From Odiellus spinosus (taxonomy: Eukaryota > Arthropoda > Arachnida > Opiliones > Phalangiidae), in assembly GCA_963920705.1 (NCBI GenBank), contig OY987231.1:16159024-16223023 (forward strand): 64,000 nucleotides of DNA, given 5' to 3'. Within the stretch, counting starts at the first letter, position 1; each line of letters begins with the position of its first letter. The notes beneath the pieces are model-generated. The model searched no databases. It was not told the DNA's origin and worked only from the letters and a program-made list of their open reading frames with translations. Shown here piece after piece: positions 18,661 to 49,955 of this stretch. The translations under genes were made by a program, and so were the position numbers.

Positions 18661-18837
18661 GGGTATACATTTGTAACATCTTACGGGTATTAACCAGCCC
18701 ATAATTTGGTTAAAGAAAAACATATTAAATGTTTTGCGTATATTTTTAATAAAAAGCGCTGCCATGGGAGTGAGGATGTCTTAACACGTAAGACTAAATA
18801 ATTAGATTAATTGTAAATAATTCTCATTAAGTTGGGA

Positions 18838-20515
18838 CACAAATTATATCAACTTGTGGAACACAAATTTAATAACTTGCGGGACACAAATTTAATAACT
18901 TGTGGGACATAAATTATATCAACTTGTGGGACATAAATTATATCAACTTGTGGGACATAAATTATATCAACTTGTGGGACATAAATTATATCAACTTGTG
19001 GGACATAAATTATATCAACTTGTGGGACATAAATTATATCAACTTGTGGGACATAAATTATATCAACTTGTGGGACATAAATTATATCAACTTGTGGGAC
19101 ATAAATTATATCAACTTGTGGGACATAAATTATATCAACTTGTGGGACATAAATTATATCAACTTGTGGGACATAAATTATATCAACTTGTGGGACATAA
19201 ATTATATCAACTTGTGGGACATAAATTATATCAACTTGTGGGACATAAATTATATCAACTTGTGGGACATAAATTATATCAACTTGTGGGACATAAATTA
19301 TATCAACTTGTGGGACATAAATTATATCAACTTGTGGGACACAAATTATATCAACTTGTGGGACACAAATTATATCAACTTGTGGGACACAAATTATATC
19401 AACTTGTGGGACACAAATTATATCAACTTGTGGGACACAAATTATATCAACTTGTGGGACACAAATTATATCAACTTGTGGGACACAAATTATATCAACT
19501 TGTGGGACACAAATTATATCAACTTGTGGGACACAAATTATATCAACTTGTGGGACACAAATTATATCAACTAGTGGGACATAAATTATATCAACTAGTG
19601 GAACATAAATTATATTAACTTTTGTTAAATTAATTTTATCTACTCTTGGAACATAAATTATAACAACTTTTGGAACATAAATTATAACAACTTTTGGAAC
19701 ATAAATTATAACAACTTTTGGAACATAAATTATAACAACTTTTGGAACATAAATTATAACAACTTTTGGAACATAAATTATAACAACTTTTGGAACATAA
19801 ATTATAACAACTTTTGGAACATAAATTATAACAACTTTTGGAACCTAAATTATAACAACTTTTGGAACCTAAATTATAACAACTTTTGGAACCTAAATTA
19901 TAACAACTTTTGGAACCTAAATTATAACAACTTTTGGAACCTAAATTATAACAACTTTTGGAACCTAAATTATAACAACTTTTGGAACCTAAATTATAAC
20001 AACTTTTGGAACATAAATTATAACAACTTTTGGAACATAAATTATAACAACTTTTGGAACATAAATTATAACAACTTTTGGAACATAAATTATAACAACT
20101 TTTGGAACATAAATTATAACAACTTTTGGAACATAAATTATAACAACTTTTGGAACATAAATTATAACAACTTTTGGAACATAAATTATAACAACTTTTG
20201 GAACATAAATTTTAACAACTTTTGGAACATAAATTATAACAACTTTTGGAACATAAATTATAACAACTTTTGGAACATAAATTATAACAACTTTTGGAAC
20301 ATAAATTATAACAACTTTTGGAACATAAATTATAACAACTTTTGGAACATAAATTATAACAACTTTTGGAACATAAATTATAACAACTTTTGGAACATAA
20401 ATTATAACAACTTTTGGAACATAAATTATAACAACTTTTGGAACATAAATTATAACAACTTTTGGAACATAAATTATAACAACTTTTGGAACATAATTTT
20501 TATCAAATTTTGGAA
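18838..20515. repeat. 24-bp minisatellite, about 70 units in sequence blocks
   Basis: There are two related 24-bp units. About 30 copies are of the type GGGACATAAATTATATCAAC (18900-19618) and about 36 of the type GGAACATAAATTATAACAAC (19650-20510). Within the first block, about 18 identical ...CATAAA units are followed by about 10 identical ...CACAAA units. In the second block a run of ...CCTAAA units sits at about 19843-19990. Because 24 is divisible by three and the unit has no stop in two frames, long artificial open frames run through it. Confidence 0.97.
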
Positions 20516-22066: not shown

Positions 22067-22072
22067 TTCCTG
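22067..22072. repeat. Left 6-bp target-site duplication (TTCCTG)
   Basis: TTCCTG directly precedes the first base shared by the inverted repeats and is repeated exactly at 33700-33705, just beyond the right end. Six base pairs is the duplication size made by Polinton/Maverick integrases. Confidence 0.93.
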
Positions 22073-22922
22073 AGAGATAAGGCAAGCGATCCACCGATAA
22101 GGGGTCCGAAGGGGGGCGCAGTGTGCTTTCCCCCTTGACCCTCGTATCTCTCCTTCCCCTAATATTTCTATTCATCGGTGAATCGCTTGCAGCGTCCTAG
22201 GGGGGCGCAGTGTGCTTTCCCCCTTGACCCTCGTATCTCTCCTTCCCCTAATATTTCTATTCATCGGTGAATCGCTTGCAGCGTCCTAGGGGGACGCAGG
22301 GTGCTTTCCCCTCCTGACCCTCGTATCTCTCCTTCCCCTAATATTTCTATTCATCGGTGAATCGCTTGCAGGGTCCGAAGGGGGACGCAGTGTGCTTTCC
22401 CCTCCTGGCCCTCGTATCTCTCCTTCCCCTAATATTTCTATTCATCGGTGAATCGCTTGCAGCGTCCTAAGGGGGGACGCAGGGTGCTTTCCCCTCCTGA
22501 CCCTCGTAGTGCTTTTGGCCGCCATCTTTCTTTTGGCCGCCATCTTTCTTTTGGCCCCCATCTTTCTTTTGGCCGCCATCTTTCTTTTTGCGAGCGATCG
22601 GAGCGCCATCTGAAGTATTTTTAAACCCCCAATTTTTGGCCGCCATCTTTCTTTTTTGCGAGCGATCGGAGCGCCATCTGAAGTATTTTCTATTTATTTT
22701 ATATTTACGAAATTTATTTTTTCTGTCCTGACCGGGGTTCGAACCCACGACCAAAAGGATCATGAGGTTGCTAGCCCACCGCGCTAACCGATCGGCCATA
22801 GAAGCATTGGTTATTAAAACCTTAAAGTTGTCTTTAATTTCTTCATGTTCCAGGTTGGTGTCAATATTGTGGATGGGTGCGGACCTTGTAAAACCTGTTT
22901 TAACAAATGGTTAAAAAATCTA
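22073..22922. repeat. Left terminal inverted repeat with internal tandem repeats
   Basis: It matches 32680-33699 in inverse orientation. Its outer part has four units of about 88 bp, each with the words CTAATATTTCTATTCATCGG and TGAATCGCTTGC. The inner part has a tRNA-like segment and GATGGCGGCC-type short repeats. It is about 170 bp shorter than the right copy because it has two fewer 88-bp units. Confidence 0.95.
22724..22800 (-). other. tRNA-like Pol III promoter segment in left TIR
   Basis: Read on the minus strand, this has an A-box-like TGGCCGATCGG and a perfect B-box GGTTCGAACCC. Between them an anticodon-loop-like CTAGCAA and a GATC/GGTC hairpin recall a class II (Ser/Leu-type) tRNA. 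The 3' strand TCAGGAC has no pairing partner upstream, so it is not a complete tRNA. An open frame of 110 codons crossing it is identical in both TIRs. The frame's VGSNPG peptide is just the translated B-box, so I treat it as non-coding. Confidence 0.6.
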
Positions 22923-23430
22923 AGTCTGCGGCTAGAAAAAGATAGGCTTCAACATAAATAAAAAACACAGTTTCAAAGACAAAGTCTCCCAAAAATCATT
23001 TTTATTGTTGCAAATTATACATTTTTATTTAATATTGCAACTCAAGGCTTCTTTTAGATTACGTCGTTGCGAGAATACCAACAAATTATCGACTCTTAAA
23101 GAGTACCTACGTCTTACAAAAACATTTTTATTGACAAATATCTTACACGCTATACATTTTAGTTCCATTATAACAATTTATATCCATTTTAGTTCGCAAT
23201 TTATACGCATTATTTTTTACACAATCCAACTTTTCCCGACCGTAGCCGATATCTGAAATCTTGTCTTCATCTAAGCGAGAAATTTTGAAATCGCAAGTTT
23301 CTTAACCAAATTAAATAGCAACTAACATACACTAAGCAAATACAGGGTTAATAGAATAAACATCTACCCATTAGCTCAAAAAAATACCGTTAACTTAAAA
23401 TATTAGCTCACTTTTTTTCCAAGTATAACA
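22923..23430. other. AT-rich non-coding spacer beside left TIR with minus-strand poly(A) signals
   Basis: No gene is seen. TTTATT at 23001-23006 (AATAAA on the minus strand) could end transcripts of the minus-strand accessory region. Confidence 0.4.
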
Positions 23431-23540
23431 TCGATGCGACTCGTTCAGTTGGGGACGGTCGAGCGAATGGCCCGTACGAAAAATCCTGGCGCTACATTCC
23501 AACGATTTACAATGGCATGGGATGATGGGAGTTCCGAGTT

Positions 23541-23987
23541 TTATTCAGCAGTGATTGATTTGTTTACCGCGAATTCGAAAAAAAATTTCCATCCTTTGTC
23601 AGATAGCCAAGGCATCAGCCGCACCTCGAATCTTTTGTAATCTCCCCTTCTTTTTCGGCATGGGGTCCAGCTACGTTTTAACGAAATAGCGGTTACTCGT
23701 AGGCTTCTCCGCCCAGGGTCCCGACCTTTTCTTAAATCCTTTTTCATTATGGCTTGGAACTTTTCAATGTTATTTCACCTTTTCCGTATAGCAGACCGAC
23801 AGTACTGTTCATCAACACCGTTTTCTATGTCCTCTCTACCTTTTTCCCCTCGCAGGTAGTCTAAAATGTCGTCTGTAAACAGGTTGGGTAAGCGTATAGC
23901 AATAGCTACACCCCGGAGTTTAACCTTAAAATACACTGCACTTGTACAAAAACTAGTACGCTTCCTTCTGCTAAAAAAGTTCAATTA
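23541..23987 (-). pseudogene. Unassigned minus-strand frame interrupted by one TGA; possible exon
   Basis: On the minus strand one frame runs from about 23987 to 23541, broken only by a TGA at 23775-23777. The upstream part has no ATG. It begins right after TAA and contains an acceptor-like CTTTTTTAGCAG, so it could be a 3' exon. It includes the acidic stretch FTDDILDYLRGEKG. The downstream part could start at its own ATG (23747) and is rich in Arg/Lys (MKKDLRKGRDPGRRSLR), 68 residues to the stop. I recognise no family. It could be one gene with a nonsense mutation, two small genes, or a spliced gene. A plus-strand open frame at 23434-23640 overlaps it and is equally unassigned. Position between the second membrane-protein copy and the AATAAA near 23003 fits a last gene of the leftward transcription unit. 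Confidence 0.35.
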
Positions 23988-24001
23988 TACGTGAAAGGCG
24001 A

Positions 24002-24193
24002 TTATACGCGGCTATGGTTTGACGATTGAACGGTGTTTGGTTTCAAGTCGATCTTTATGTCATAGTGCTGAACCCAAAAATTCATAAATTCAAGAAAGCC
24101 TATAACTAATACGAGGGTTAATAGGACGATAAGATTTTGAGGTTTTTTAGCCAAAATTCTCGAGAGAGCTGTAGATTCGGACGGTATGTCCAT
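24002..24193 (-). CDS. Small single-span membrane protein, copy 2 (distal)
   Basis: This 63-residue protein has a basic segment (RILAKKPQN, 12-20), one predicted membrane helix (about 21-40, LIVLLTLVLVIGFLEFMNFW) and a polar tail (IKIDLKPNT, 46-54). It has no cleavable signal; the positive-inside rule suggests the N terminus stays cytosolic. It is 75% identical (47 of 63 residues) to the protein at 25452-25643, and the similarity continues about 120 bp upstream, so gene and promoter were duplicated together. Both copies are uninterrupted, start in the same CAAGATGGAC context and keep the FLEFMNFWVQHY core, which suggests both are used. I do not recognise the family. The pair brackets the BIR and PPP1R15-like genes. 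Confidence 0.7.
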   Translation of the reverse strand: MDIPSESTALSRILAKKPQNLIVLLTLVLVIGFLEFMNFWVQHYDIKIDLKPNTVQSSNHSRV

Positions 24194-24391
24194 CTTGGTG
24201 GTTTAGAGTCAAGTGTCGCTTCTTTTGCAAGTCAATCGCGAGGTCACTACGCGAACCGCGCGCGCGAAGGGAGGTGGACTGTCACCGCGAATCGCGAACC
24301 GCGGCGCGTCAATTATATCGCGTCGAGATAAGTGTAGGTGTAGGCGTAGGTTTAAATGAAAAAAACGCAATTATTATAGAAAACAAAACAT

Positions 24392-24397
24392 TTTATT
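24392..24397 (-). terminator. Minus-strand poly(A) signal (AATAAA)
   Basis: TTTATT on the plus strand lies 150 bp beyond the stop of the PPP1R15-like gene and before the second membrane-protein promoter. It is a plausible 3' end for the BIR/PPP1R15-like transcript. Confidence 0.45.
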
Positions 24398-24547
24398 GAA
24401 AAATTCTTACAAACCATACATTATTTTAAACATGGTTAAACATTCACTTTTAAAGGGTTAAGAAATTTATTTGAATTCAATGAAAAAGCTTCTTTTAAAC
24501 ATGCGTACGCAGTCGTAGGATATGCCTTACGAATCTTCTTTGCCCAG

Positions 24548-24733
24548 CTATGGGGTACTCAGGGGCGTTTTTAATTTTAATAATTTTTTTCGGAGAATCG
24601 GGTGTAACAACACGTGCATTTTTTTAATCCGGTTCCGAAATCTCATGGCGTCTCGCCAATGATAATTTCTTCTGTCCTCGTCGGAATTTATGTAGTAAAT
24701 TTCGACAGAACTGTCAAATCGAACCTTGCGCAT
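24548..24733 (-). CDS. PPP1R15 (GADD34)-like PP1/eIF2alpha-binding mini-protein
   Basis: This 61-residue protein starts MRKVRFDSSVEIYYI. KVRF at 3-6 is a consensus RVxF docking motif for protein phosphatase 1, followed by a hydrophobic Val-Glu-Ile-Tyr segment. A later stretch, WRDAMRFRNRIKK (27-39), has the Trp then RFxxRI helix that in the PPP1R15 family binds eIF2alpha and actin, and LLHPIL follows as in that family. In known members this core recruits PP1 to dephosphorylate eIF2alpha and restore translation under stress; some animal DNA viruses carry similarly short versions against PKR signalling. The spacing between Trp and RFxxRI is a few residues shorter than in host proteins. Its ATG lies inside the end of the BIR gene in another frame (46-bp overlap), so both may come from one transcript. 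The family assignment is motif-based inference. Confidence 0.62.
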   Translation of the reverse strand: MRKVRFDSSVEIYYINSDEDRRNYHWRDAMRFRNRIKKMHVLLHPILRKKLLKLKTPLSTP

Positions 24734-25182
24734 GATCCAATACTTTCTTCACGTGGTACTGTAGGACAAGTTTTTCTACGTCTCTTCGGCTGGCTGTAAC
24801 GGTGATGAATGGCTTTCCAGCTTTGTCTTTTGTGTGGGTACGCGATTTTTGGGGAATGTTCAAATAGTTTTCCGCCCTCGCGTCGTCTATACAAGGGGTA
24901 TTCGCCTTTTGGGGGGTATTTCCCCGTGACGTCATCGCACACGCCTGCGCTGGCGCGCGCTAACTTTTGAATGAACTCACAACGAGGAAATTTCTCTCTA
25001 TGCTCTTCCAGCGGGTCGTCAGTGGTCTGCCACGCTGTAAGCCGACCGTGACACGTAAAACACTCGACCTCATCGCCCCCCTGGTTACGGAAAAAGAAAC
25101 CAGCTTCAGCCATTAAGATGGGCGAGATGTTGCGATGGGGGTAATCGAAGAATGTAGCGAAACGAAAGCGTGTGTCGTCCAT
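24688..25182 (-). CDS. Single-BIR inhibitor-of-apoptosis-like protein
   Basis: This protein has 164 residues. Residues 5-73 form a BIR zinc-binding domain: RFRFATFFDYP at the start, AEAGFFF at 26-32, then CFTC (C41, C44), H61 in EEH and C68 in FPRC, with the exact C-x2-C-x16-H-x6-C spacing. BIR proteins bind caspases or IAP antagonists and block apoptosis. There is no second BIR, RING or UBA domain, so it is much shorter than typical host IAPs. The last 70 residues are Arg/Lys-rich with no recognised fold. An overlapping frame (24714-24935) reads more protein-like there (DVEKLVLQYHVKKVL), so a frameshift or splice near residue 85 is possible. A minus-strand TATAAG at 25218-25213 lies 36 bp before the ATG. 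The gene is read leftward, away from the capsid genes. Confidence 0.85.
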   Translation of the reverse strand: MDDTRFRFATFFDYPHRNISPILMAEAGFFFRNQGGDEVECFTCHGRLTAWQTTDDPLEEHREKFPRCEFIQKLARASAGVCDDVTGKYPPKGEYPLYRRREGGKLFEHSPKIAYPHKRQSWKAIHHRYSQPKRRRKTCPTVPREESIGSCARFDLTVLSKFTT

Positions 25183-25212
25183 GATGGCGGGGCACTGAAT
25201 GAAAAGTGTAGG

Positions 25213-25218
25213 CTTATA
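25213..25218 (-). promoter_or_regulatory. TATA-like box before BIR gene
   Basis: The minus strand reads ATTATAAGCC, 31-36 bp upstream of the BIR start codon. Transcription would begin only a few bases before the ATG. The adjacent TTTATT (25234-25239) could be the poly(A) signal of the preceding membrane-protein gene. Confidence 0.4.
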
Positions 25219-25411
25219 ATATTTAGAGGTGTTTTTATTTTGTCGGGGGTAGCTGTCGATTCGGGGGCGGACATTGATTTCACCATGGAACGATGGGGAG
25301 AGCGTTAATCCTCAGGGAATGACAGATAGGGAGCGGCCTTTCTTTGCAAATTGCCCCTCTTCGCTGGCCGGGAATTTCCCTTTTCTTTTCATAGAGGGTC
25401 GTTTTTCCCCA

Positions 25412-25423
25412 TGACGTCACGTG
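25412..25423. promoter_or_regulatory. CRE / E-box composite (TGACGTCACGTG)
   Basis: A palindromic CRE (TGACGTCA) overlaps a CACGTG E-box, 230 bp upstream of the BIR gene and just beyond the stop of the first membrane-protein gene. A second composite, CACGTGACGT (25745-25754), lies 100 bp upstream of that membrane-protein gene. ATF/CREB and XBP1/ATF6-type stress factors bind such sites; whether they are used here is inference. Confidence 0.4.
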
Positions 25424-25451
25424 TTTTACTCGTGAATTTACAGAGTCCCAA

Positions 25452-25643
25452 TTATACGGTGCTACGGTTAAAGGGTTGACCGGTATTTGGTTTCAAATCA
25501 ATCTTAATTTCATAGTGTTGAACCCAAAAATTCATAAATTCAAGAAACCCGCTTACAAACATGAGGGTTAATATGATGATAAGATTTTGAGGTTTCTTGG
25601 GCAATATTCTGGCGAGAACCGTGGATTCGGGCGGTGTGTCCAT
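25452..25643 (-). CDS. Small single-span membrane protein, copy 1 (proximal)
   Basis: This 63-residue paralogue of the protein at 24002-24193 has a basic stretch RILPKKPQN, one membrane helix (about 21-40) and an invariant FLEFMNFWVQHY / IKIDLKPNT C-terminal half. Of 63 residues 16 differ, mostly near the N terminus, in the helix and in the last nine residues; many changes are conservative. Upstream, both copies share an AT-rich box (here CATAATTAAC, in the other ATATAATTGAC) about 95-120 bp before the ATG, followed by GC-rich DNA. It is the first complete gene leftward of the divergent control region. Function unknown; localisation to a cellular or viral membrane is inferred only from the helix. 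Confidence 0.72.
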   Translation of the reverse strand: MDTPPESTVLARILPKKPQNLIIILTLMFVSGFLEFMNFWVQHYEIKIDLKPNTGQPFNRSTV

Positions 25644-26205
25644 CTTGGCGGCGTAGAGTCAAGTGTCGTTTCTTTTGCAAGTCAATCCTGATGTCACTAT
25701 GCGAAGGGGGGCTGACACCGAGAACCGTGGCGTGTTAATTATGCCACGTGACGTTCCTTCGCGTAAAACATGTGCGGGGAGCCCTGATATATTTACACGT
25801 ACCACCAAATATTAGAAAACCCCATATTTAGAAATAGTGTAAAGATCCAAAATCGCAAATAAAAACTTACATCAACCTTTTTTGTTAAATAACCACCGTC
25901 ATCTATAATAGAATACAAAATGTCAGTTTCGCGTAAAGTTTGGGCCATATTAACGATTAGTTTCGGCTCAGTGCTATAGATAAAATCAAGGTTATTCCAA
26001 TGAAGCGCTCGAAATCTAAAGGCACGATTTTTGGTCGGTACTTTTATTTGAAAAATGCAGGTTTCACCTCGAATGTTTTGGTTCCATCAGCGCAGAAACG
26101 AAAGTTTGTGAAACATTTTGACGACACGAAAACTTAAATTCAATAATCGCTATTTCGCGTTCGATAATATATTAGCGGGGAAGCGGGGAGGGGGTTGACC
26201 GGGGG
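25644..26205. other. Divergent control region with an exon-like minus-strand stretch
   Basis: On the minus strand a 72-codon stretch (26086-25871) is open. It reads for example FQIKVPTKNRAFRFRALHW and, after a Met, AQTLRETDILYSIIDDGGYL. It ends at GAT followed by GTAAGT, a consensus splice donor (intron from 25870 leftward). A stop precedes it, so if real it starts at an acceptor such as the AG before GTGAAACC or at the internal Met. I recognise no family. The rest is AT-rich with a CACGTGACGT box at 25745-25754. Confidence 0.4.
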
Positions 26206-26212
26206 TATAAAT
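26206..26212 (+). promoter_or_regulatory. TATA box of the plus-strand structural gene block
   Basis: TATAAAT sits in a G-rich context (GGGGGTATAAATCCGG), 57-63 bp before the ATPase start codon and about 30 bp before a plausible initiator in CTCCATTTTACGG. No comparable box precedes the later genes, which have little or no intergenic space, so this may be the main promoter for the block. Confidence 0.6.
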
Positions 26213-26268
26213 CCGGCACACTTTTAGCCTCGGCTCCATTTTACGGCGAACAACCAACCAAGATCGTC

Positions 26269-26886
26269 ATGATTCCGTTTTATCACCCGTTTAACGCCAT
26301 TTTGGTGGGACCCTCTCAATCGGGGAAGACTCAACTAGTTTTAAAACTACTCGAACACAAGGCCGTAATGTTCTCACCCCTGTTTAACGAAATTCACTGG
26401 TATTACGGGGAATGGCAACCCTTTTTCGACGCTTTGAAAGAAACGGTTACTTTCAGGTCGGGATTACCCGACCTGGCAGAATACAACGGTAGCAAGCCGT
26501 GTCTTTTAATCGTCGATGACCTAATGTCCGAGAATAAGGGACAAATCGGAGCGCTGTTTACGAAAGGTACACATCATAGGAACCTAAGCGTGATTTTCAT
26601 TAGTCAGAACTTATTCCATCAGTCGAAGGACTCACGTGACATATCTCTGAATGCTCACTACCTCATCTTAATGAAATCCCCCCGTGACAAACAACAACTG
26701 GCCACGATAGCTCGCCAAATGTTCACGGATAATTGGCGTTTTGTAGTAGACGCGTACCGGGACGCTACGGGACCGGCCTTCGGATACCTTTTACTGGACA
26801 TGAAACAACAGTGTCCTGAAAACCAGCGGGTTAGAACCTTGATTTTTCCGGGGGACTCGTGCGTCGTGTACGTCCCGAAGGTATAA
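26269..26886 (+). CDS. A32/FtsK-HerA-type genome-packaging ATPase
   Basis: This 205-residue P-loop ATPase has Walker A GPSQSGKT at 14-21 and Walker B LLIVDD at 79-84. A THHRNLSVIFISQNLF block at 101-116 carries the sensor glutamine-asparagine typical of the A32-like packaging ATPases of Polintons and related double-jelly-roll viruses. These pump the genome into preformed capsids. The length is close to the usual 200-260 residues and there is no insertion or break. It is the first gene of the rightward block, 57 bp after the TATA box, with ATG context GATCGTCATGA. The next gene follows after 40 bp. Confidence 0.93.
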   Translation: MIPFYHPFNAILVGPSQSGKTQLVLKLLEHKAVMFSPLFNEIHWYYGEWQPFFDALKETVTFRSGLPDLAEYNGSKPCLLIVDDLMSENKGQIGALFTKGTHHRNLSVIFISQNLFHQSKDSRDISLNAHYLILMKSPRDKQQLATIARQMFTDNWRFVVDAYRDATGPAFGYLLLDMKQQCPENQRVRTLIFPGDSCVVYVPKV

Positions 26887-26926
26887 AACGGCGGGATAAC
26901 CTGTCCGCAACCGTCAATAGTGAAGA

Positions 26927-27262
26927 ATGCCTTACGCGGTGAAGTCGCAAAGAGATTTGCTCTCTGTCCTAGCCCATTCGAGACGCGCTCAACGTAGGAC
27001 TTTATTGAAAAACGCCAAGAAATCGCTAATCGACGCTATAGCCGAGTGTGTTCATAATACCTTGTACGGTAACGTAACATTAAACCAGGCCCAAGTAAAG
27101 AAATTGGCTAGACATTCGACAAAATTAAGAAAGATTGCTAACAAGAAACTAGCGTGGAAAGTTAAACGTGACATACTAGTTCAAGAAGGTGGAGGTTTTT
27201 TCTCGCTTCTCTTCCCTATCGTCTCGTCCCTGATCGGCGCCATCGCCGGAAACCAGTCTTAA
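26927..27262 (+). CDS. Small basic Polinton-type core/structural protein
   Basis: This 111-residue protein is strongly basic and helical. It has an N-terminal LAHSRRAQRRTLL stretch, an AIAECVHNTLYGN segment near 37-49 and a glycine-rich hydrophobic end (GGGFFSLLFPIVSSLIGAIAG, about 88-108) that could insert in membranes. Proteins with this plan, a basic body carrying an IxECxxNxLxGN motif then a GGG-hydrophobic tail, are recurrent neighbours of capsid genes in metazoan Polintons, but their role is not established to my knowledge. A minor capsid or core role is inferred from the neighbourhood. The next gene begins 2 bp after the stop. Confidence 0.72.
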   Translation: MPYAVKSQRDLLSVLAHSRRAQRRTLLKNAKKSLIDAIAECVHNTLYGNVTLNQAQVKKLARHSTKLRKIANKKLAWKVKRDILVQEGGGFFSLLFPIVSSLIGAIAGNQS

Positions 27263-27264
27263 TC

Positions 27265-27945
27265 ATGCAGTACGCTCAGAAAATGTTACTCGTGCCAAAC
27301 TCAGCTCTCAAAGACGATCCTTTCCCGCACCAACAAAAACAAGTCGTAACGGCGCTAGACGGCGAAATGCACTCCATTTTGGATAGAAAGGATTTGGACG
27401 ATAGTTCGAAATGGCGTTTGTACGAACAGGCGCTGCAAAGACATACCAACTTGCATAATATCGCTAAACAACCGAAACAAATATTGATAGAGGACGTCCC
27501 TAGTAAGGGTTTGAATTTAGCTTGGCTGGACGACATTCCTCTTAGATATATATCCAGTGTTCAGAAGCTCGTTGATCAGATCGACGATATTCCCCACAAG
27601 ATTAGGTGGTCAGAGACGGATGAAGTAATTGTGAATAACTCTGTAATACCGGGTTCTAACATTAGGGACATTGCCCTGGAATTTGTCAGACCGACGTATG
27701 GTACGAAACCGCGGGGTTATTACGCTTTCACCAACTTGCTAGGTAAGTTCATGCCTCAAACAGCGTCACCGCTCCCTAAAACCCCCTTATCCAGCGTGAA
27801 AAAATTCACATCATCAAGCGTGAAAAAGAGGACTCCGTCCCCCCTATCAAGCGTGAAAAAGAGGACTCCGTCCCCCACATCCGGCGTGAAAAAGCTAACT
27901 CCATCCCCCAAATGGACGCCGTACAGGACAACTCCGAGATACTAA
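27265..27945 (+). CDS. Polinton-type conserved protein with S/T-P-rich basic tail
   Basis: This 226-residue protein has a conserved-looking part (1-165) with KMLLVPNSAL near the start, ALDGEMHSIL (30-39) and KWRLYEQALQRH (49-60), a pattern I associate with proteins beside Polinton structural or integrase genes. Residues 170-226 form a repetitive tail of SSVKK and KKRTPSP units, repeated four to five times, carrying many Ser-Pro/Thr-Pro sites. Such a tail could bind nucleic acid and be regulated by phosphorylation. The function is unknown. Its last 34 bases overlap the start of the integrase gene in another frame. Confidence 0.7.
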   Translation: MQYAQKMLLVPNSALKDDPFPHQQKQVVTALDGEMHSILDRKDLDDSSKWRLYEQALQRHTNLHNIAKQPKQILIEDVPSKGLNLAWLDDIPLRYISSVQKLVDQIDDIPHKIRWSETDEVIVNNSVIPGSNIRDIALEFVRPTYGTKPRGYYAFTNLLGKFMPQTASPLPKTPLSSVKKFTSSSVKKRTPSPLSSVKKRTPSPTSGVKKLTPSPKWTPYRTTPRY

Positions 27946-29030
27946 AAGATATTTACTTTAGACCAGACCACGAAGGTAGTTTCGGAGGTGTGGAAAAACT
28001 GTATTCAGCCACAAAATCGCATGGAGTTACGAGACAAGAAGTTAGAGATTGGCTTAAGGGAGAAGAGACGTACACCCTACACAAGAGGGTTTTTAAAAAG
28101 TTTAAGCGAAACAAGGTGTTGGTAGACAATATAGCTGACCAATACCAAGCCGACCTCAATGATATGCGGTCATTGTCCAAACTTAATGACGGTTACAACT
28201 ACATTTTGACAGTAATCGATTGTTTTAGTCGTAAAGCCTGGGGTGTACCCCTGAAAAATAAATCCGGTACGTCGATAGTCGAGGCGTTTAAGAAGGTATT
28301 TAGCGACAAAGTTCCATTGAAGTTACAAACTGACAAGGGGACTGAATTTAAGAACAAACATTTTCAAGCCTATTTAAAAGAAAAGGGTGTAAAATTTTTC
28401 ACTAGCGAAAACGATGATATTAAAGCGTGTATGGTCGAACGATTAAACCAAACCCTGAAGGCCCGGATGTACAGATATTTTACTAAAAACAACACCAAGA
28501 GATACATTGAGGTTTTAGATGATCTGGTTAAGGCTTACAATAGTTCGAAACATTCGACCATAAAAATGGCCCCCGATGAGGTTTCGGAAAAGAACGTCCT
28601 TAAAGTTCTAAATAATATCTATGGGAAATACTTCAACGAGAAAAAACTTTGGAAAGAAGGTCAGAAAGATAAACCAAAGGGGCTGAGAGTGGGGGATTAC
28701 GTTCGTGTTAGCCGAAACAAGATGATTTTTGAAAAAGGGTATGACGAAAATTGGACCTTGGAGATTTTTAAAGTTACCGGGTTAGTAGAAAGATATCCAC
28801 CCGTATACAGGCTGGAAGATTTAGCGGGAGAGCCTATTAAAGGAGTGTTCTATACTCAAGAGCTTCAGTCAGTCGACAGACCCGCGACCTACAAGATAGA
28901 GAAAGTTTTACGTAAGCGTAACAGAAAAGGACAGAAAGAGTTGTTCGTAAAGTGGCTAGGTTACCCCGAATCAATGTCCTGTTGGATTCACGCTCAAGAT
29001 GCAGTCTCCCTTTTACCTAACGCTTCCTAG
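27912..29030 (+). CDS. RVE-family integrase with C-terminal chromodomain
   Basis: This 372-residue integrase has an N-terminal helical part (1-60) with the SFGGVEKLY...GVTRQEVRDWL motif of Polinton-type integrases. The catalytic core spans about 70-215 with D81 (QADLNDM), D141 (QTDKGTEF) and E176 (MVERLNQTLK), a D-x59-D-x34-E spacing. An SH3-like segment (about 256-322, LRVGDYVRVSRNK) follows, then a chromodomain at 327-367 (YKIEKVLRKR ... VKWLGYPES ... CWI). It would insert the element and make the 6-bp duplication seen at its ends. The chromodomain, which reads methylated histone tails in other elements, may steer insertion to certain chromatin. No break is seen. The start overlaps the upstream gene by 34 bp and the stop overlaps the penton gene by 32 bp. 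Confidence 0.95.
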   Translation: MDAVQDNSEILKDIYFRPDHEGSFGGVEKLYSATKSHGVTRQEVRDWLKGEETYTLHKRVFKKFKRNKVLVDNIADQYQADLNDMRSLSKLNDGYNYILTVIDCFSRKAWGVPLKNKSGTSIVEAFKKVFSDKVPLKLQTDKGTEFKNKHFQAYLKEKGVKFFTSENDDIKACMVERLNQTLKARMYRYFTKNNTKRYIEVLDDLVKAYNSSKHSTIKMAPDEVSEKNVLKVLNNIYGKYFNEKKLWKEGQKDKPKGLRVGDYVRVSRNKMIFEKGYDENWTLEIFKVTGLVERYPPVYRLEDLAGEPIKGVFYTQELQSVDRPATYKIEKVLRKRNRKGQKELFVKWLGYPESMSCWIHAQDAVSLLPNAS

Positions 29031-29880
29031 TAATGCTAGTATGAAAATTTACGCTGATAACACTACCGCCCGTTACTCTACCAAACTATCAAAAGCTATA
29101 CAATTGGAGGGGAATGATTGGGAGGTGGCCTTAGTTGAGATTATATACCCCTTATCCTTTCACAATATTAAGGAAGGCGAAGGTTACGTCCAACTAACAG
29201 TGAATGAGCCTGTTGCCGCATACGTACCATCCGTACCACCAAAGACCCGAACTATCGTAAGAAATGGTGGCGCCGTAACGTATGTGGAGACTCCACCCAA
29301 ACCTGCGGTAGTAGGTCATACTTTTACTATCCCCGGTGGTTACTACGCAAGCTTACCCGTATTAATAAAGCAGTTGTACCGGGGTCTTGAAACGTGGGAA
29401 TACGGTGCTAGGTTTTCGATTATCGGTGATCCCTTATCCGACAACATAAGCGTATTTGTCCGACATCTTTCGACCGTCGCCTTTTCCCCAGCTCTTACCA
29501 GAGTCCTAGGGTTCACGGAAGAGTTTAAGACTTTTAGTTGTCCCGATGACAAGTCGGAGTTAAGTTTCAGAAGCGACGTCCCTGCTAGATTAAACTACTT
29601 TGTACCCGATCAGCTGTTTGTCTACTCCGATATCGTGAGTAATGAGCTAGTAGGCGATACGGTCGCTCCCCTACTCCGAATCGTTAGTGTCGAGGATAGA
29701 CCCCATGGCTCGGTAATCACGAAAACATTCGATTCACCTCACTACGTTAAAGTTGCTAAACGCTATTTTGATACGTTGGAAATGGATATAAGGACAGGCT
29801 TAGGACAAGTTGCGCCATTCGAGTTCGGACAGAGCACGTGTAAACTTCACTTTAGACCATGCCCAAACCACACGTCTTAG
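28999..29880 (+). CDS. Penton-like minor capsid protein (single jelly roll)
   Basis: This 293-residue protein starts FYLTLPSNASMKIYADN, with WEVALVEIIYP at 41-51, IPGGYY at 111-116, FVYSDIV at 207-213, VGDTVAPLLRIV at 218-229 and a C-terminal PFEFG...LHFRP (273-287). This series of motifs is characteristic of Polinton/adintovirus vertex (penton) proteins, which form the fivefold capsomers beside the major capsid protein. The length is normal and the gene is unbroken. The ATG (28999) lies within the last codons of the integrase gene and the stop overlaps the next gene by 22 bp, so the start is fixed by the conserved N terminus rather than by spacing. Confidence 0.9.
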   Translation: MQSPFYLTLPSNASMKIYADNTTARYSTKLSKAIQLEGNDWEVALVEIIYPLSFHNIKEGEGYVQLTVNEPVAAYVPSVPPKTRTIVRNGGAVTYVETPPKPAVVGHTFTIPGGYYASLPVLIKQLYRGLETWEYGARFSIIGDPLSDNISVFVRHLSTVAFSPALTRVLGFTEEFKTFSCPDDKSELSFRSDVPARLNYFVPDQLFVYSDIVSNELVGDTVAPLLRIVSVEDRPHGSVITKTFDSPHYVKVAKRYFDTLEMDIRTGLGQVAPFEFGQSTCKLHFRPCPNHTS

Positions 29881-30263
29881 AATCACGCCCCTGTGCGTAT
29901 CGTGAATACTATCTCGACCAGGCTGGCGGTGGGGTTTCTAGAGTCTTTGTAGGCACCCCTAATCAGAGAGGACATGGTATCGGTAGTATGCTCAAGGGTT
30001 TGTTCCGCTGGGCCAAGCCATTATTAATTAGGGGGGCGAAACATTTGGGCGTCAAGGCTGCTACGACTGGCTATAAAATTCTTGGTGACGTGGCCGAAGG
30101 ACAAAATGTAAAAACCGCCGCTAAACGTCGGTTTATCGAGACTATGGATGAAATTGTCAGCCCCCAGGAAGGTTCGGGTGTTATAAAGAGACCCAAATTG
30201 AAACACCTGTCAGTCGTGAACAGGAAGCCGAGGAAGATACCGCGCGATATTTTCTCGTCCTGA
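29859..30263 (+). CDS. PX-like minor capsid/core protein
   Basis: This 134-residue basic protein has YYLDQAGGGVSRVFVG at 17-32, NQRGHGIGSMLKGLFR at 35-50, then an amphipathic helix PLLIRGAKHLG and a lysine-rich C terminus. The YxxQxGxG...FxG...QRGxGxG...LGGLFR plan is shared by the PX/pVI-like minor proteins next to the major capsid gene in Polintons. The Gly-rich site before the amphipathic helix resembles a region where adenovirus-type proteases cut their precursors, but I see no exact consensus. A role in membrane disruption or core packing is inferred. MCP starts 7 bp after its stop. Confidence 0.82.
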   Translation: MPKPHVLESRPCAYREYYLDQAGGGVSRVFVGTPNQRGHGIGSMLKGLFRWAKPLLIRGAKHLGVKAATTGYKILGDVAEGQNVKTAAKRRFIETMDEIVSPQEGSGVIKRPKLKHLSVVNRKPRKIPRDIFSS

Positions 30264-30270
30264 TAAAATA

Positions 30271-31566
30271 ATGTTATCCCTTGAAGCTCTTAAGAGCGAA
30301 CTCGACATTTTCGCACCAACACCCACCCAGACCAGCATCGAACATTCACAATGTACTTGGTACAAACCTTTATCTGCTCTAAACGATAGCTCAACTGTTG
30401 AATACCAAATTCCAGGCAATGGCGACTACTATATTGATTTGGCACACACTATGCATTATACTCGTCTCAGTGTTACCAAAGACGATGGCGGTATATTGCC
30501 GGACGACGCTGTAATAGGGCTCGTAAACAACGCCGCTCACGCGTTGTGGCGTACTTGCGAAATATATTTCGGATCAACTCTAGTGACACCCGCTGCAAAC
30601 AATTACTCTTATCGCGCCTACATTGAATCGCTCTTAAATTACGGGGCGGACGCCAAAACCTCTCATCTGATTTCCGCCGGCTGGGTCAAAGACGAGGGTG
30701 GAAAGATGGATGACCTGACCAACAACGCGGGATTTCTCATTAGAAAAAAAGCCGTTGAAAAATCTATTGACATTGAGTTTTACTGCCCAGTGTTTTGCGA
30801 TGTTTTTAACATTCCTGAATATCTGATGAACGGTGTTGATGTTAAAGTATCTTTCGCAAGAAACAAGGATGCATTTGTTTTAATGCTCAAGGAAACCGCT
30901 AGTCTGAAAGACTGCAAAATTAATCACAAAGAAGACGGTTTGAACGTCCGTAAAGTCAAACTTAGCCCTAAAATACTGTTAGCGCACGAAGCGGCTCTAG
31001 CCAGGAGCGCGGCCCAGTATAATTTTACCCGTACGGAGATTAAAACGAAAACCCTGGCGGCGCTGACCCAAAGTCAGAGTTTCGACAATATATACTTGGG
31101 CGCTTTACCTACGAGGGTCATAATTGGTTTGGTCTCCAACAAAGCGTTCAAAGGTAGTTACGCCGACAACCCATTCAACTTTAAGCACTACGACTTAAAC
31201 CATTTGGCCTTGTACGTTGATAACGACCAGGTTCCTTCGAAGGCCTTGTCCCCAAATTTTACTAAAAAGCTGTTTATGAGAGAGTATTATACGATCTTTT
31301 CGGGTTGCGGCATACATTACGGGGACAACGGTAATGACATTTCACCGTTCGAGTACGCCAATGGATTTACTTTTTACGCGTTCGATTTGACTCCGGATAT
31401 TTCTGCAAATAACAGTAATCATTGGAATCCTGTGCGCCAAGGGCAGTTACGTTTGGACTTGGGATTCGCCACAGTCTTACCCGACGCTGTGGTGTGCGTG
31501 GTCTACTCGGAATTTCAAAGTCTGATTCAGATTGATAAAAATAGGAACGTCATTGTCGATTATTAA
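30271..31566 (+). CDS. Major capsid protein, double jelly roll (hexon-like)
   Basis: This 431-residue protein carries the Polinton MCP signature: YRAYIESLLNYG (114-125), VRKVKLSPKILLAHE (226-240), LGALPTRVIIGLV (276-288), NPFNF (300-304), FDLTPD (371-376) and a closing IQIDKNRNVIVDY. These define the double-jelly-roll trimeric capsomer protein, seen in annotation as F54H12.2-like. The length is slightly under the 450-650 often seen, with shorter tower loops, but both jelly rolls seem covered and no stop or gap is present. Its stop codon overlaps the protease start as TAATG. Confidence 0.94.
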   Translation: MLSLEALKSELDIFAPTPTQTSIEHSQCTWYKPLSALNDSSTVEYQIPGNGDYYIDLAHTMHYTRLSVTKDDGGILPDDAVIGLVNNAAHALWRTCEIYFGSTLVTPAANNYSYRAYIESLLNYGADAKTSHLISAGWVKDEGGKMDDLTNNAGFLIRKKAVEKSIDIEFYCPVFCDVFNIPEYLMNGVDVKVSFARNKDAFVLMLKETASLKDCKINHKEDGLNVRKVKLSPKILLAHEAALARSAAQYNFTRTEIKTKTLAALTQSQSFDNIYLGALPTRVIIGLVSNKAFKGSYADNPFNFKHYDLNHLALYVDNDQVPSKALSPNFTKKLFMREYYTIFSGCGIHYGDNGNDISPFEYANGFTFYAFDLTPDISANNSNHWNPVRQGQLRLDLGFATVLPDAVVCVVYSEFQSLIQIDKNRNVIVDY

Positions 31567-32033
31567 TGGCCGGAACAAGCACTACGGATTTGGTTTACGC
31601 TTTATCAAAAACGCCTTGCTTCTCTGGCGTTTACCCGTCAGATAGGCTACCCGCTAGAATAACCAAATACCCCTCAGCCATGGTTATAAACTTTGACCGA
31701 CAACATGACCGTGGATCACATTGGGTGGCAGTATTCATCGACGGTTTTCGTAATGGGTACTACTTTGACAGTTTTGGGTTACAACCATTTATACCGTCCA
31801 TACGTCAATTTCTAAACTCCAACTGCCGTAAATGGTCGTATGGAAAAAGGCAACTTCAGAGCCTCGAAAGCGACGTTTGTGGACCGTACAGCGTCCTTTA
31901 CCTCATACATAGAAGTCACCGAAAAAGTACCAAAGCCTTCTTGAGAGGATTTTCTAAGAATCAGCATCTAAACGACACGAAGATTACACGAAGATTCATA
32001 AACCATATTCTGCGGCTACGTACACGAGATTAA
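31566..32033 (+). CDS. Adenain-like maturation cysteine protease
   Basis: This 155-residue protease of the adenovirus/Ulp1 (C5-like) fold has the catalytic series in order: H52 in GSHWVAVFID, D68 in YYFDSFG, Q98 in RQLQSLES (oxyanion hole) and C105 in SDVCGPYSV. This family cuts capsid precursors during virion maturation in Polintons and adenoviruses. Length and spacing are typical for the short Polinton version. The ATG shares one base with the MCP stop (TAATG), which fits translational coupling or reinitiation. It is the last gene of the block; an AATAAA follows at 32351. Confidence 0.93.
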   Translation: MAGTSTTDLVYALSKTPCFSGVYPSDRLPARITKYPSAMVINFDRQHDRGSHWVAVFIDGFRNGYYFDSFGLQPFIPSIRQFLNSNCRKWSYGKRQLQSLESDVCGPYSVLYLIHRSHRKSTKAFLRGFSKNQHLNDTKITRRFINHILRLRTRD

Positions 32034-32679
32034 ACCAAGTTTGGACCATATTTAAGAAATAATTGTATAGTTTGTAAAAATTGATCATTAAAATGTTTTT
32101 TTGTTTAACCACTGACTTTTTTACTAGTTGAAGCCTATACTTCTTTAAGTCCGCCTAGATCGACTGAAGCCCTCTAAATCTACACGGTCGCGGGAAAAAC
32201 GCGGCGCGAAACCGCGGTCGCTGGAAAAACGCGGCGCGAAACCGCGGTCGCGGGAAAAACGCGGCGCGCGCGCGCGCGCGTGAAATCGCGGGGCGCCCGG
32301 CCGCGGGAGAGAGAGAGGGGAGAGACACCCCCCTGGTGGACATTTTGATTAATAAAAATATTGTAAAAACATAATTTTTTGAGAAAATACAAGTTATGCC
32401 AACAGAAATCTGTTGATCTGTAATGACGACCCTATACAAAAAAGTGTAAATGTAAATTTCAGCTGTTTCCATTGAAATAACGTTGAATCGAAACGTGGAT
32501 ACTGACACGAAATCGATAATTTAGAGAGGTTAAAAATAACACCAAACAAGGTTTTTGTCTAGATTATTAAAACGCTTGGTTTTTGGTAAAAAATTGCAAT
32601 CTAAAAGTATGATATTGGTTAAAGTACAACGTGTTTATGGTTTTCTATGAGGGGAGACTTCCCCCTTTAATTGAGTGTC
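32034..32679. other. Non-coding right arm with CpG-rich tandem repeats and poly(A) signal
   Basis: No gene is seen. A GC-rich block at 32188-32305 repeats about 33 bp three times (GGGAAAAACGCGGCGCGAAA then CCGCGGTCGC). A short open frame crossing it on the minus strand (Arg-Ala-Phe-Pro repeats) is a by-product. AATAAA at 32351-32356 could end the structural transcript. Confidence 0.55.
32188..32305. repeat. 33-bp CpG-rich direct repeats
   Basis: Three units contain GGAAAAACGCGGCGCGAAAC; the last runs into a (CG)n tract and GGGGCGCCCGGCCGCGGG. Related GCGAACCGCG words occur near the other end of the unique region at 24240-24315. Confidence 0.8.
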
Positions 32680-33699
32680 TAGATTTTTTAACCATTTGTT
32701 AAAACAGGTTTTACAAGGTCCGCACCCATCCACAATATTGACACCAACCTGGAACATGAAGAAATTAAAGACAACTTTAAGGTTTTAATAACCAATGCTT
32801 CTATGGCCGATCGGTTAGCGCGGTGGGCTAGCAACCTCATGATCCTTTTGGTCGTGGGTTCGAACCCCGGTCAGGACAGAAAAAATAAATTTCGTAAATA
32901 TAAAATAAATAGAAAATACTTCAGATGGCGCTCCGATCGCTCGCAAAAAAGAAAGATGGCGGCCAAAAATTGGGGGTTTAAAAATACTTCAGATGGCGCT
33001 CCGATCGCTCGCAAAAAGAAAGATGGCGGCCAAAAGAAAGATGGGGGCCAAAAGAAAGATGGCGGCCAAAAGAAAGATGGCGGCCAAAAGCACTACGAGG
33101 GTCAGGAGGGGAAAGCACCCTGCGTCCCCCCTTAGGACGCTGCAAGCGATTCACCGATGAATAGAAATATTAGGGGAAGGAGAGATACGAGGGCCAGGAG
33201 GGGAAAGCACACTGCGTCCCCCTTCGGACCCTGCAAGCGATTCACCGATGAATAGAAATATTAGGGGAAGGAGAGATACGAGGGTCAGGAGGGGAAAGCA
33301 CCCTGCGTCCCCCTAGGACGCTGCAAGCGATTCACCGATGAATAGAAATATTAGGGGAAGGAGAGATACGAGGGTCAGGAGGGGAAAGCACACTTCGGAC
33401 CCCTCTGCAAGCGATTCACCGATGAATAGAAATATTAGGGGAAGGAGAGATACGAGGGTCAGGAGGGGAAAGCACACTGCGTCCCCTTCTGCAAGCGATT
33501 CACCGATGAACAGAAATATTAGGGGAAGGAGAGATACGAGGGTCAGGAGGGGAAAGCACACTGCGTCCCCCTAGGACGCTGCAAGCGATTCACCGATGAA
33601 TAGAAATATTAGGGGAAGGAGAGATACGAGGGTCAAGGGGGAAAGCACACTGCGCCCCCCCTTCGGACCCCTTATCGGTGGATCGCTTGCCTTATCTCT
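32680..33699. repeat. Right terminal inverted repeat with internal tandem repeats
   Basis: This is the inverse of 22073-22922. It holds six units of about 83-90 bp, each with GCAAGCGATTCACCGATGAA and AATATTAGGGGAAGGAGAGA, against four on the left. The innermost 120 bp are identical to the left copy by eye. Confidence 0.95.
32802..32878 (+). other. tRNA-like Pol III promoter segment in right TIR
   Basis: Copy of the left-TIR segment: TGGCCGATCGG (A-box-like) and GGTTCGAACCC (B-box) about 50 bp apart, no acceptor pairing. Transcription from it would run outward through the tandem repeats toward the element end. Confidence 0.6.
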
Positions 33700-33705
33700 T
33701 TCCTG
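33700..33705. repeat. Right 6-bp target-site duplication (TTCCTG)
   Basis: Identical to 22067-22072, directly after the last base of the inverted repeat (CCTTATCTCT). Confidence 0.93.
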
Positions 33706-41913: not shown

Positions 41914-42246
41914 AGCCGATGAAACCCTCCTTTGAAGTCTACTACTCCAATGTTCCATATAGCGCTCCTCTCTGTATGGGTAAAATTCCCAATTTTACGA
42001 GTTAGAAGGGGTCCTACTTCATCCCCCCTGTCTACGATAAATTGGAAATTCTCTCTCTCCACAAACGACGACGTTTTTTGGACGAACTCCAAGGCTGCTA
42101 GAGATATTCGCTCGACGAACTCCCGCTCCGAAAATATCTACCGTTAGGAGGCGTACGAATCGCGCCTTTTGAGAATAACCCATACAGAGAGGGGTAGACA
42201 AGACCCGGGAGTAATAGACTTCAAAGGAGGGTTTCATCGGCTTCTG
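41914..42246 (-). mobile_element. MITE family A, copy 2
   Basis: Full-length inverted copy. The left end lacks the first four bases of the terminus. GTTTAT occurs on both sides (41908-41913 and 42247-42252), consistent with the family's 7-bp duplication after decay. Confidence 0.78.
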
Positions 42247-42954: not shown

Positions 42955-43435
42955 TTAATTAAAGGGAAACATTGAGCTAAAAATGGAACATATTTGATTT
43001 TATTAAAATCATATTCGAGAATTTTCAAACAATTAATTTAGACACGTTTTTGATGTTTAACTTAATTTCTTAAGTTTGGTAAAATTTGAAAAAAAAAAAA
43101 TATTAAATATAAATTCGACAAAATTATATCATTTCAGTTTTAAACAGCGCTTGTAACGTCTTAACATTAAAAGAATAGGCTGGCGTTTGATGCCTAAGAT
43201 CTTTAGTATCAAACGCCAGCCTATTATTTTAATATTAGGACCTTACAAACGCTGAAGGCTGAAATAATATGATTGGCCCGAATTTATATTTGCTTTTTTT
43301 TTTCAAAGAAATTAATTTAAATACCAAAAACGTGTCTAAAAATTCCGAAAAAATTCTCGAATACCTTTTTTGACATGGTGATTCCGAAAATAAATTCAAT
43401 TTATTCCATTATTAGCTCCAAGTTTCCCTTTAAAA
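42955..43435. repeat. Palindromic MITE-like element with strong central hairpin
   Basis: The ends read AAAGGGAAAC and GTTTCCCTTT. The centre has AATAGGCTGGCGTTTGAT and its perfect inverse about 15 bases later (43173-43226). Intermediate blocks also pair (for example CAGCGCTTGTAA with TTACAAACGCTG), giving an imperfect palindrome of about 480 bp. Confidence 0.65.
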
Positions 43436-49542: not shown

Positions 49543-49955
49543 GAGAATATAACTTAACAATAAGTGTTATCGTTTAAATAGGCCTAATCCACCAGTAATC
49601 GAATTTTATAAACAAATATTAAACTAGAAATAAATTTAAAACTTACCAGGAAAATAGGCTTAGCTGGAGAGATGGAAATCCTGAATTTCTTCGCATTGAT
49701 GAGTCATTGACCAATTGGCAAAGGCCCATCGTTAAGGCAAGATCTCCATGAGACTTCCAATAACATTCGATTGGTCGCTTATCCATCAATGCAATGAAAT
49801 TCAGAATCTCCATATTTCCTGCTAAGCCTATTTTCTTTGTAAGTTTTAAATTTATTTCAGTAGTTTAAAATTACTTTTTCTGGTAGATTAGGCCTATTTA
49901 AACGATAAGGAATCGAGAAGAAAACATGTTCTTACGTTGCATTATCCCTTTAAAA
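49543..49955. mobile_element. Palindromic MITE family C, copy 2
   Basis: The GTTTAAATAGGCCTAATCCA arm and its inverse TGGTAGATTAGGCCTATTTA flank a centre with inverse blocks around GACCAATTGGC and GCATTGATG. Confidence 0.7.

What the first reader, a model, noticed from the sequence alone, without database searches (positions are those of the whole stretch)
22073..33699. Complete, recent Polinton-family element that encodes a full capsid module but no DNA polymerase B
Both ends, both inverted repeats and the target duplication are intact, so this 11.6-kb form is probably what integrated. It has ATPase, integrase, penton, PX-like, MCP and protease genes without a break, yet no room for the protein-primed polymerase that defines autonomous Polintons. 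It may be a capsid-bearing satellite that uses a helper's polymerase, a distinct lineage that replicates another way, or the product of an internal deletion.
Basis: partly seen in the sequence, partly recalled or inferred. Interest (0 to 1): 0.92.

Follow-up and report, generated by a model that had tools for sequence, protein, structure and literature searches.

The report
Capsid-bearing Polinton satellite lacking DNA polymerase
A virus-like DNA element present in dozens of copies in one eukaryotic genome keeps its integration and particle genes but has no gene for copying its DNA, while longer elements in the same genome with the same ends do carry that gene and may copy it, as a helper does for a satellite.

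Summary
The ends are exact: 22073-33699, 11,627 bp, 6-bp duplication TTCCTG, inner terminal repeats 699/700 identical. Pfam scans find integrase, chromodomain, ATPase and BIR, but no DNA polymerase B. MCP and penton rest on gene order; no profile matched them.

The source genome answered late. The MCP matches 40 places, a lower bound. Ten PolB pieces from this genome find nothing in the window or in 50 sibling stretches, including 20 left arms. Four different duplications show independent insertion. MCP is open in 23 of 29 siblings, dN/dS about 0.06. Four 18-kb elements share the terminal sequence; PolB was found in all four.

So this is a multi-copy PolB-less lineage, not a chance deletion, with likely helpers beside it. 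Helper use is inferred, not shown.

The window copy combines two left-arm modules that siblings carry singly.

The parts
22067..22072 (.). left copy of 6-bp target site duplication TTCCTG
22073..22922 (.). left terminal inverted repeat (850 bp); ~90-bp tandem units at 22110-22508, 18-bp units at 22512-22588; tip shared with four PolB-bearing 18-kb elements
22928..23077 (-). fossil L1: diverged inverted copy of right arm 32154-32006 (protease 3' end and flank)
   Evidence: 110/130 identical, 0 of 500 shuffles;
24005..24193 (-). 63-aa ORF, copy A (hydrophobic stretch seen by eye), in direct repeat 24001-24255
24347..24538 (-). fossil L2: diverged inverted copy of the protease 3' end and its 3' flank
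24548..24733 (-). 61-aa PPP1R15/GADD34/DP71L-like ORF (stop included)
24688..25182 (-). 164-aa BIR-domain ORF (stop included), no RING found; overlaps the PPP1R15-like ORF
25455..25643 (-). 63-aa ORF, copy B, in direct repeat 25451-25705
26269..26886 (+). A32-like packaging ATPase, Walker A GPSQSGKT, Walker B LLIVDD
   Evidence: no PDB match at E up to 1
26927..27262 (+). 111-aa ORF, weak adenovirus protein X resemblance
   Evidence: E 0.047, below cut-off
27265..27945 (+). 226-aa ORF of unknown function
   Evidence: no meaningful match; model pLDDT 49.3
27912..29030 (+). retroviral-type integrase with C-terminal chromodomain, no HHCC motif
28999..29880 (+). 293-aa putative penton; name by gene order and recollection
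   Evidence: open in 22 of 29 siblings
29859..30263 (+). 134-aa putative minor virion protein
   Evidence: open in 27 of 29
30271..31566 (+). 431-aa putative major capsid protein; name by gene order and recollection
   Evidence: open in 23 of 29, dN/dS 0.064
31566..32033 (+). adenovirus/S273R-like cysteine protease
32680..33699 (.). right terminal inverted repeat (1,020 bp)
33700..33705 (.). right copy of TSD TTCCTG

Best explanation
A satellite-type Polinton: a multi-copy lineage that keeps integrase, packaging ATPase, protease and (putative) capsid but has lost PolB and is copied by the polymerase of co-resident PolB-bearing Polintons that have the same ends. Shown by sequence: intact insertion with 6-bp TSD; no PolB in this copy or in the sibling left arms read; many copies and several independent insertions; MCP under strong purifying selection among siblings; four 18-kb elements with the same terminal sequence (200 bp compared) and a PolB gene. 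Inferred: the helper's protein-primed PolB recognises the shared ends and copies the linear DNA; the element packages itself; the BIR protein restrains apoptosis and the PPP1R15-like protein recruits PP1 against eIF2alpha-dependent shut-off; the integrase inserts the DNA in the next cell. In the helper, PolB lies near one end (2-4 kb from the tip, pointing outwards); in the satellite the corresponding end holds the 63-aa ORF, with or without BIR and PPP1R15-like genes, and inverted fossils of the protease end, so overwriting of the left end by the right end is a plausible route of PolB loss.
For: 40 MCP places scored of 63 candidates. PolB: 0 hits of 10 own-genome PolB pieces, and 0 of the helper's own PolB piece, in L001-L050 and the window; the ten pieces find all 10 PolB loci. 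ATPase start found within about 70 bp of its expected distance from MCP in 17 of 20 copies, leaving no room for PolB between. TSDs CGCATT (L031), ATTGGG (L032), GACTTC (L033 and L034, probably one insertion duplicated with its flanks), TTCCTG (window). Of 17 tip-to-tip pairs, 12 hold this MCP (10.2-14.7 kb), four are 18.1-18.7 kb and one is 8.4 kb without an MCP match. The four long ones: 35-36 of the first 37 bp equal to the window's tip, alignable over 200 bp, TSD match in 3 of 4; PolB in 4 of 4, open throughout the 1-kb piece read in 3. MCP dN/dS 0.064 over 20 gap-free siblings; penton 0.26 over 10.
Against: No copying by a helper, free DNA, transcript or particle has been seen. The PolB piece of one long element (L075) has a longest open stretch of 405 aa, and no PolB of this type was read in full. 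The dN/dS comparisons all use the window as one partner and share ancestry. MCP and penton are not matched to a known capsid fold. Two of the copies (13.6 and 14.7 kb) hold extra DNA not read in full. For six copies (L065-L070) the right end lay outside the piece fetched, so no TSD could be tested. BIR and PPP1R15-like genes occur in only 4 of 20 sibling left arms, so the defence cassette is not typical of the family. PMC7615683 passages say the C-terminal PP1-binding piece of R15A alone does not raise activity on eIF2alpha, and this ORF covers mainly that piece.
Confidence: 0.7

Rival explanations
1. PolB-less lineage copied by host polymerases: the integrase works as a cut-and-paste transposase, as in Ginger elements, or host enzymes copy an excised form.
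For: Ginger transposons use a related integrase without PolB (PMC2836005 passages). Tlr1 has integrase, ATPase and capsid proteins without PolB (PMC4642659 passage), though with a helicase.
Against: Ends, including the start of the tandem units, are shared with PolB-bearing elements, as expected if one polymerase serves both. Ginger has 4-5-bp TSDs and shorter TIRs.
Confidence: 0.13
2. PolB was lost several times and recently from PolB-bearing parents with this same MCP; selection on MCP dates from before the losses, and the short forms are dead ends spread passively.
For: Left arms differ between siblings; gene loss is ordinary in Polintons (PMC4028283 passage).
Against: No copy with this MCP and PolB was found: none of the 40 MCP places lies in the four long elements, and the one MCP read there is 54% identical. 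All 20 left arms lack PolB, while siblings differ from the window in MCP at dS about 0.1 with dN/dS 0.064.
Confidence: 0.08
3. An unrecognised replication protein is present, for example the 226-aa ORF or a spliced gene.
For: The 226-aa ORF has no family match; introns were not modelled.
Against: Six-frame Pfam scans of the element show no polymerase, primase or helicase.
Confidence: 0.06
4. One-off internal deletion of an autonomous element.
For: Would explain a single PolB-less copy.
Against: Many copies, four different TSDs, no PolB in 20 of 20 left arms.
Confidence: 0.03

Closest known systems
Polinton/Maverick elements
   Same: rve integrase with chromodomain, A32-like ATPase, adenovirus-like protease, long TIRs, 6-bp TSD, probable capsid genes; ends shared with a PolB-bearing Polinton of the same genome
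Tlr1 element of Tetrahymena
   Same: integrase, ATPase and capsid proteins without ordinary PolB (passages)
   Different: Tlr1 has a helicase protein; none found here
Ginger transposons
   Same: related integrase, no polymerase
   Different: 4-5-bp TSDs, shorter TIRs (passages); no capsid or packaging module by recollection
Virophages and satellite viruses
   Same: proposed dependence on another element
   Different: here capsid genes are kept and replication is outsourced
African swine fever virus A224L and DP71L
   Same: a RING-less BIR protein and a small PPP1R15-like protein in one genome (PMC5618007 passages; PDB match to DP71L)
   Different: unrelated large virus; no sign of common descent of the pair

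Membership tests
Polinton/Maverick | retroviral-type integrase | tested here: met
   rve above cut-off, D141 and E176, no HHCC
Polinton/Maverick | protein-primed DNA polymerase B | tested here: not met
   absent in window copy and in 20 sibling left arms
Polinton/Maverick | 6-bp TSD and long TIRs | tested here: met
   TSD length for Polintons from PMC10045372 passage
Polinton/Maverick | packaging ATPase | tested here: met
Polinton/Maverick | adenovirus-like protease | tested here: inconclusive
   below Pfam cut-off; S273R E 0.0023
Polinton/Maverick | double jelly-roll MCP and penton | tested here: inconclusive
   no match, poor model; related MCP in a PolB-bearing element
Tlr1-like element | superfamily 1 helicase protein | tested here: not met
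Ginger | 4-5-bp TSD, short TIRs | tested here: not met
Satellite with helper | lacks replication gene, lineage spreads | tested here: met
Satellite with helper | co-resident element with same ends and the missing gene | tested here: met
Satellite with helper | replication shown to need the helper | not testable with these tools
   needs experiment or expression data
PPP1R15/DP71L | KVxF motif and RF..RI region | tested here: met
   Pfam E 1.3e-4 on the 66-aa stop-to-stop frame, below cut-off; PDB E 0.0079 on the 61-aa ORF; motif kept in two PolB-bearing elements
PPP1R15/DP71L | eIF2alpha dephosphorylation | not testable with these tools
   needs assay
IAP (BIR) | BIR zinc signature | tested here: met
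   68.5 bits, exact CX2CX6WX3DX5HX6C

The most novel reading that the evidence does not exclude
A stable lineage of Polinton satellites that keep their own capsid and integrase and outsource only DNA copying to a PolB-bearing Polinton with the same ends: the mirror image of satellites that keep replication genes and use a helper's capsid, with some members carrying a dual block of apoptosis and eIF2alpha-dependent shut-off.
Probability: 0.6. Interest if true: 0.87.

Novelty: new variant of a known kind. Interest (0 to 1): 0.78.

Why it matters
PolB is one of the two genes that give Polintons their name. A spreading, capsid-selected family without it, beside PolB-bearing elements with the same ends, would be a natural helper-satellite pair inside one genome and would make helper dependence of Polintons directly testable. 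The BIR and PPP1R15-like genes, found also beside PolB in two other Polintons of this genome, are evidence that these elements meet a cellular antiviral response, as viruses do.

Tried and rejected
Relatives elsewhere: MCP, integrase, ATPase and penton in viral contigs and MCP in genome contigs: 0 of 5 queries gave a relative; two degenerate motif scans of viral contigs found 0. I presume these collections hold few eukaryotic proviruses.

Structure: single-sequence models of MCP and the 226-aa ORF were too poor, so no fold search was run. A tRNA-like stretch in the TIR, suspected by eye, got no Rfam match at E up to 1. DUF3432 and Cornifin in the left flank lie in the 24-bp satellite and pass no single-stretch test.

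Readings changed on checking. I first took the two 63-aa ORFs (dS 0.54) as an old duplication inside this element that argued against deletion in the left arm. Siblings show instead two modules that usually occur singly, so the window copy and L031 look like recombinants and that argument is withdrawn. My first alignment range for fossil L1 began at 22925 by choice; with the range opened to the TIR boundary it starts at 22928. Block-of-two shuffles were replaced by dinucleotide-preserving ones: L1 and L2 0 of 500 each; controls A to D 160, 40, 66 and 22 of 500. The tblastn match of L2 to the protease end has E 0.042 only. L1b was reached by 4 of 300 shuffles and is not claimed. The PP1 pattern was written after the hit (0 strict, 8 loose matches in 200 shuffled windows). 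Odds were changed: satellite up from 0.48 to 0.70, one-off deletion down from 0.22 to 0.03.
Full report
Observation. The element spans 22073-33699 (11,627 bp). Both ends begin AGAGATAAGGCAAGCGATCC; TTCCTG flanks it at 22067-22072 and 33700-33705. TIRs are 850 and 1,020 bp; the innermost 700 bp differ at one site, and the rest differs in the number of ~90-bp tandem units. Parts of the element have GC 0.39-0.50 against 0.338 in the flanks.

Genes. Eight open + strand ORFs fill 26269-32033 with overlaps or gaps of at most 40 bp. ATPase, integrase and chromodomain pass Pfam's cut-offs. The protease does not, but its best PDB match is S273R, E 0.0023. MCP and penton have no meaningful match in Pfam, PHROGs, NCBIfam or PDB; their names rest on gene order and recollection. 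Six-frame Pfam scans of 22600-33699 show no polymerase, primase or helicase.

Left arm. On the minus strand lie a 164-aa BIR protein with exact zinc signature and no RING found and, overlapping it, a 61-aa ORF like the PP1-binding core of PPP1R15. Pfam PP1c_bdg gives E 1.3e-4 on the 66-aa stop-to-stop frame, below the cut-off; all five PDB sequences listed at E up to 10 are PPP1R15B or DP71L. Two other PolB-bearing Polintons of this genome carry both genes next to an ATPase gene: BIR 36% and 39%, PPP1R15-like 38% and 39%, with KVxF or HVHF, a hydrophobic pair, DR or NR and RF..(R/K)I kept and the same short spacing. That makes the small ORF a conserved gene. African swine fever virus has a similar pair (PMC5618007 passages). 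PMC7615683 passages report PP1 docking by RVxF but no rise in eIF2alpha activity from the C-terminal piece of R15A alone, so the proposed action is uncertain.

Siblings. The genome (443,074,358 bases, 286 contigs) has at least 40 places matching the first 730 bp of MCP, 87-100% identical; 40 of 63 candidates were scored. I read the left arms of 20 siblings (the 20 best after the window, L031-L050; 20 of 39). Ten PolB pieces from this genome find no match in these, in the 30 MCP neighbourhoods or in the window, while they find all ten PolB loci. Fifteen arms are complete from a tip (with up to 6 mismatches in 20) to the ATPase, and the ATPase lies at the expected distance from MCP in 17. TSDs: L031 CGCATT, L032 ATTGGG, L033 and L034 both GACTTC, probably one insertion copied with its flanks; for six further copies the right end lay outside the fetched piece. 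With the window that makes four different TSDs.

Selection. Of 29 siblings, MCP is open end to end in 23, penton in 22, the 134-aa gene in 27, the protease in 4; most protease matches listed stop about 10 bp short of the window's end, so the last figure mostly reflects my end-to-end rule. Pooled dN/dS against the window: MCP 0.064 (20 gap-free copies), penton 0.26 (10), 134-aa gene 0.40 (26), protease 0.14 (4, only 3 changes). The comparisons share one partner, so they are not independent, but MCP is clearly constrained among these copies.

Modules. Siblings carry the 63-aa ORF in 19 of 20 left arms (16 in one full-length piece, 3 split, absent in L047), no stops in the matched stretches. L035-L046 and L048-L050 (15 of 20) carry the module with copy A; L032-L034 the one with BIR, PPP1R15-like gene and copy B, in L032 with BIR and PPP1R15-like gene in the opposite orientation; L031 and the window carry both in tandem. 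The BIR domain part and the PPP1R15-like core lack stops in 4 of 4 copies, but the BIR tail changes frame in three (L031, L033, L034) and was not matched in L032.

Helper candidates. PF03175 gives 161 matches in the genome, 77 of 570 candidates scored, many in open frames of 1,273-1,298 aa. The tip pattern with up to 2 mismatches occurs 41 times, its reversed control 0 times. Seventeen tip-to-tip pairs result: 12 hold this MCP (10.2-14.7 kb), one is 8.4 kb without an MCP match, four are 18.1-18.7 kb; seven tips stay unpaired. The four long elements match the window's first 37 bp at 35-36 positions and align over 200 bp; TSDs match in 3 of 4 (CGTATG, AACACA, TCTCTC) and not in C18:7571247. In C18:4575246 a PolB lies 2-4 kb from the tip on the minus strand, and MCP (54% over 102 residues), protease (41%) and BIR (62% over 74) lie near the other end. 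PolB 96-99.6% identical to it lies in the three others, open through the 1-kb piece read in each; in C18:4575246 the longest open stretch is 405 aa. Two other PolB-bearing elements (pieces L071-L074) showed no such tips in the 5-kb flanks read.

How PolB may have been lost. The helper's PolB lies near one end, protease and BIR near the other. In the window the left end holds inverted fossils of the right arm's protease end: 22928-23077 against 32154-32006, 110/130 identical, and 24347-24441 against 32137-32039, 76/93; 0 of 500 dinucleotide shuffles reach either, while four controls are reached by 22 to 160 of 500. A second piece of the latter, 24486-24538, matches protease codons (E 2.8e-4). 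Overwriting of the left end by the right end fits; re-use of one polyadenylation region is the alternative. In the helper BIR lies downstream of the protease, so the order in the satellite does not follow from one simple copying step.

Known families. All Polintons are said to encode PolB and integrase (PMC4642659 passage); this lineage fails that test and meets those for integrase, ATPase, TIR and TSD. Nine searches of the held library (listings and abstract starts seen) showed no PolB-less capsid-bearing Polinton satellite and no Polinton with BIR and PPP1R15-like genes; the adintovirus paper is not held, so novelty is only weakly supported.

Limits. Helper use, free DNA and expression are untested.

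Noticed in passing
L071 and L072 (C2:11039400-11053300): The flanks of one PolB gene are inverted copies of each other over 3,399 bp at 99.94%, an unusually long inverted repeat.
   Followed up: no
G000, PF03175 matches: The genome holds at least 161 PolB profile matches, in several families with near-identical open frames: a large, apparently young Polinton population.
   Followed up: partly
22512-22650 and 32953-33090: Each TIR has four copies of AAGATGGCGGC (8 of 9 in the window) and two of CAGATGGCGCT (all 4 matches of a degenerate form); they resemble YY1 and CTCF sites (recalled names).
   Followed up: partly
27812-27910: 33-bp tandem repeat (3 copies) in the C-terminus of the 226-aa ORF, just before the integrase start.
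   Followed up: no
32185-32268: GC-rich 30-bp tandem repeat (2.8 copies) in the right arm.
   Followed up: no
18832-20515: 24-bp satellite of about 70 copies, about 1.6 kb left of the element.
   Followed up: no
42959-43433 and 49567-49908: Two self-complementary stretches (70% and 72%) in the right flank, like fold-back elements.
   Followed up: no
2188-2316 and 42094-42222: Two flank stretches encode nearly the same 43 residues in opposite orientation, probably a dispersed repeat.
   Followed up: no
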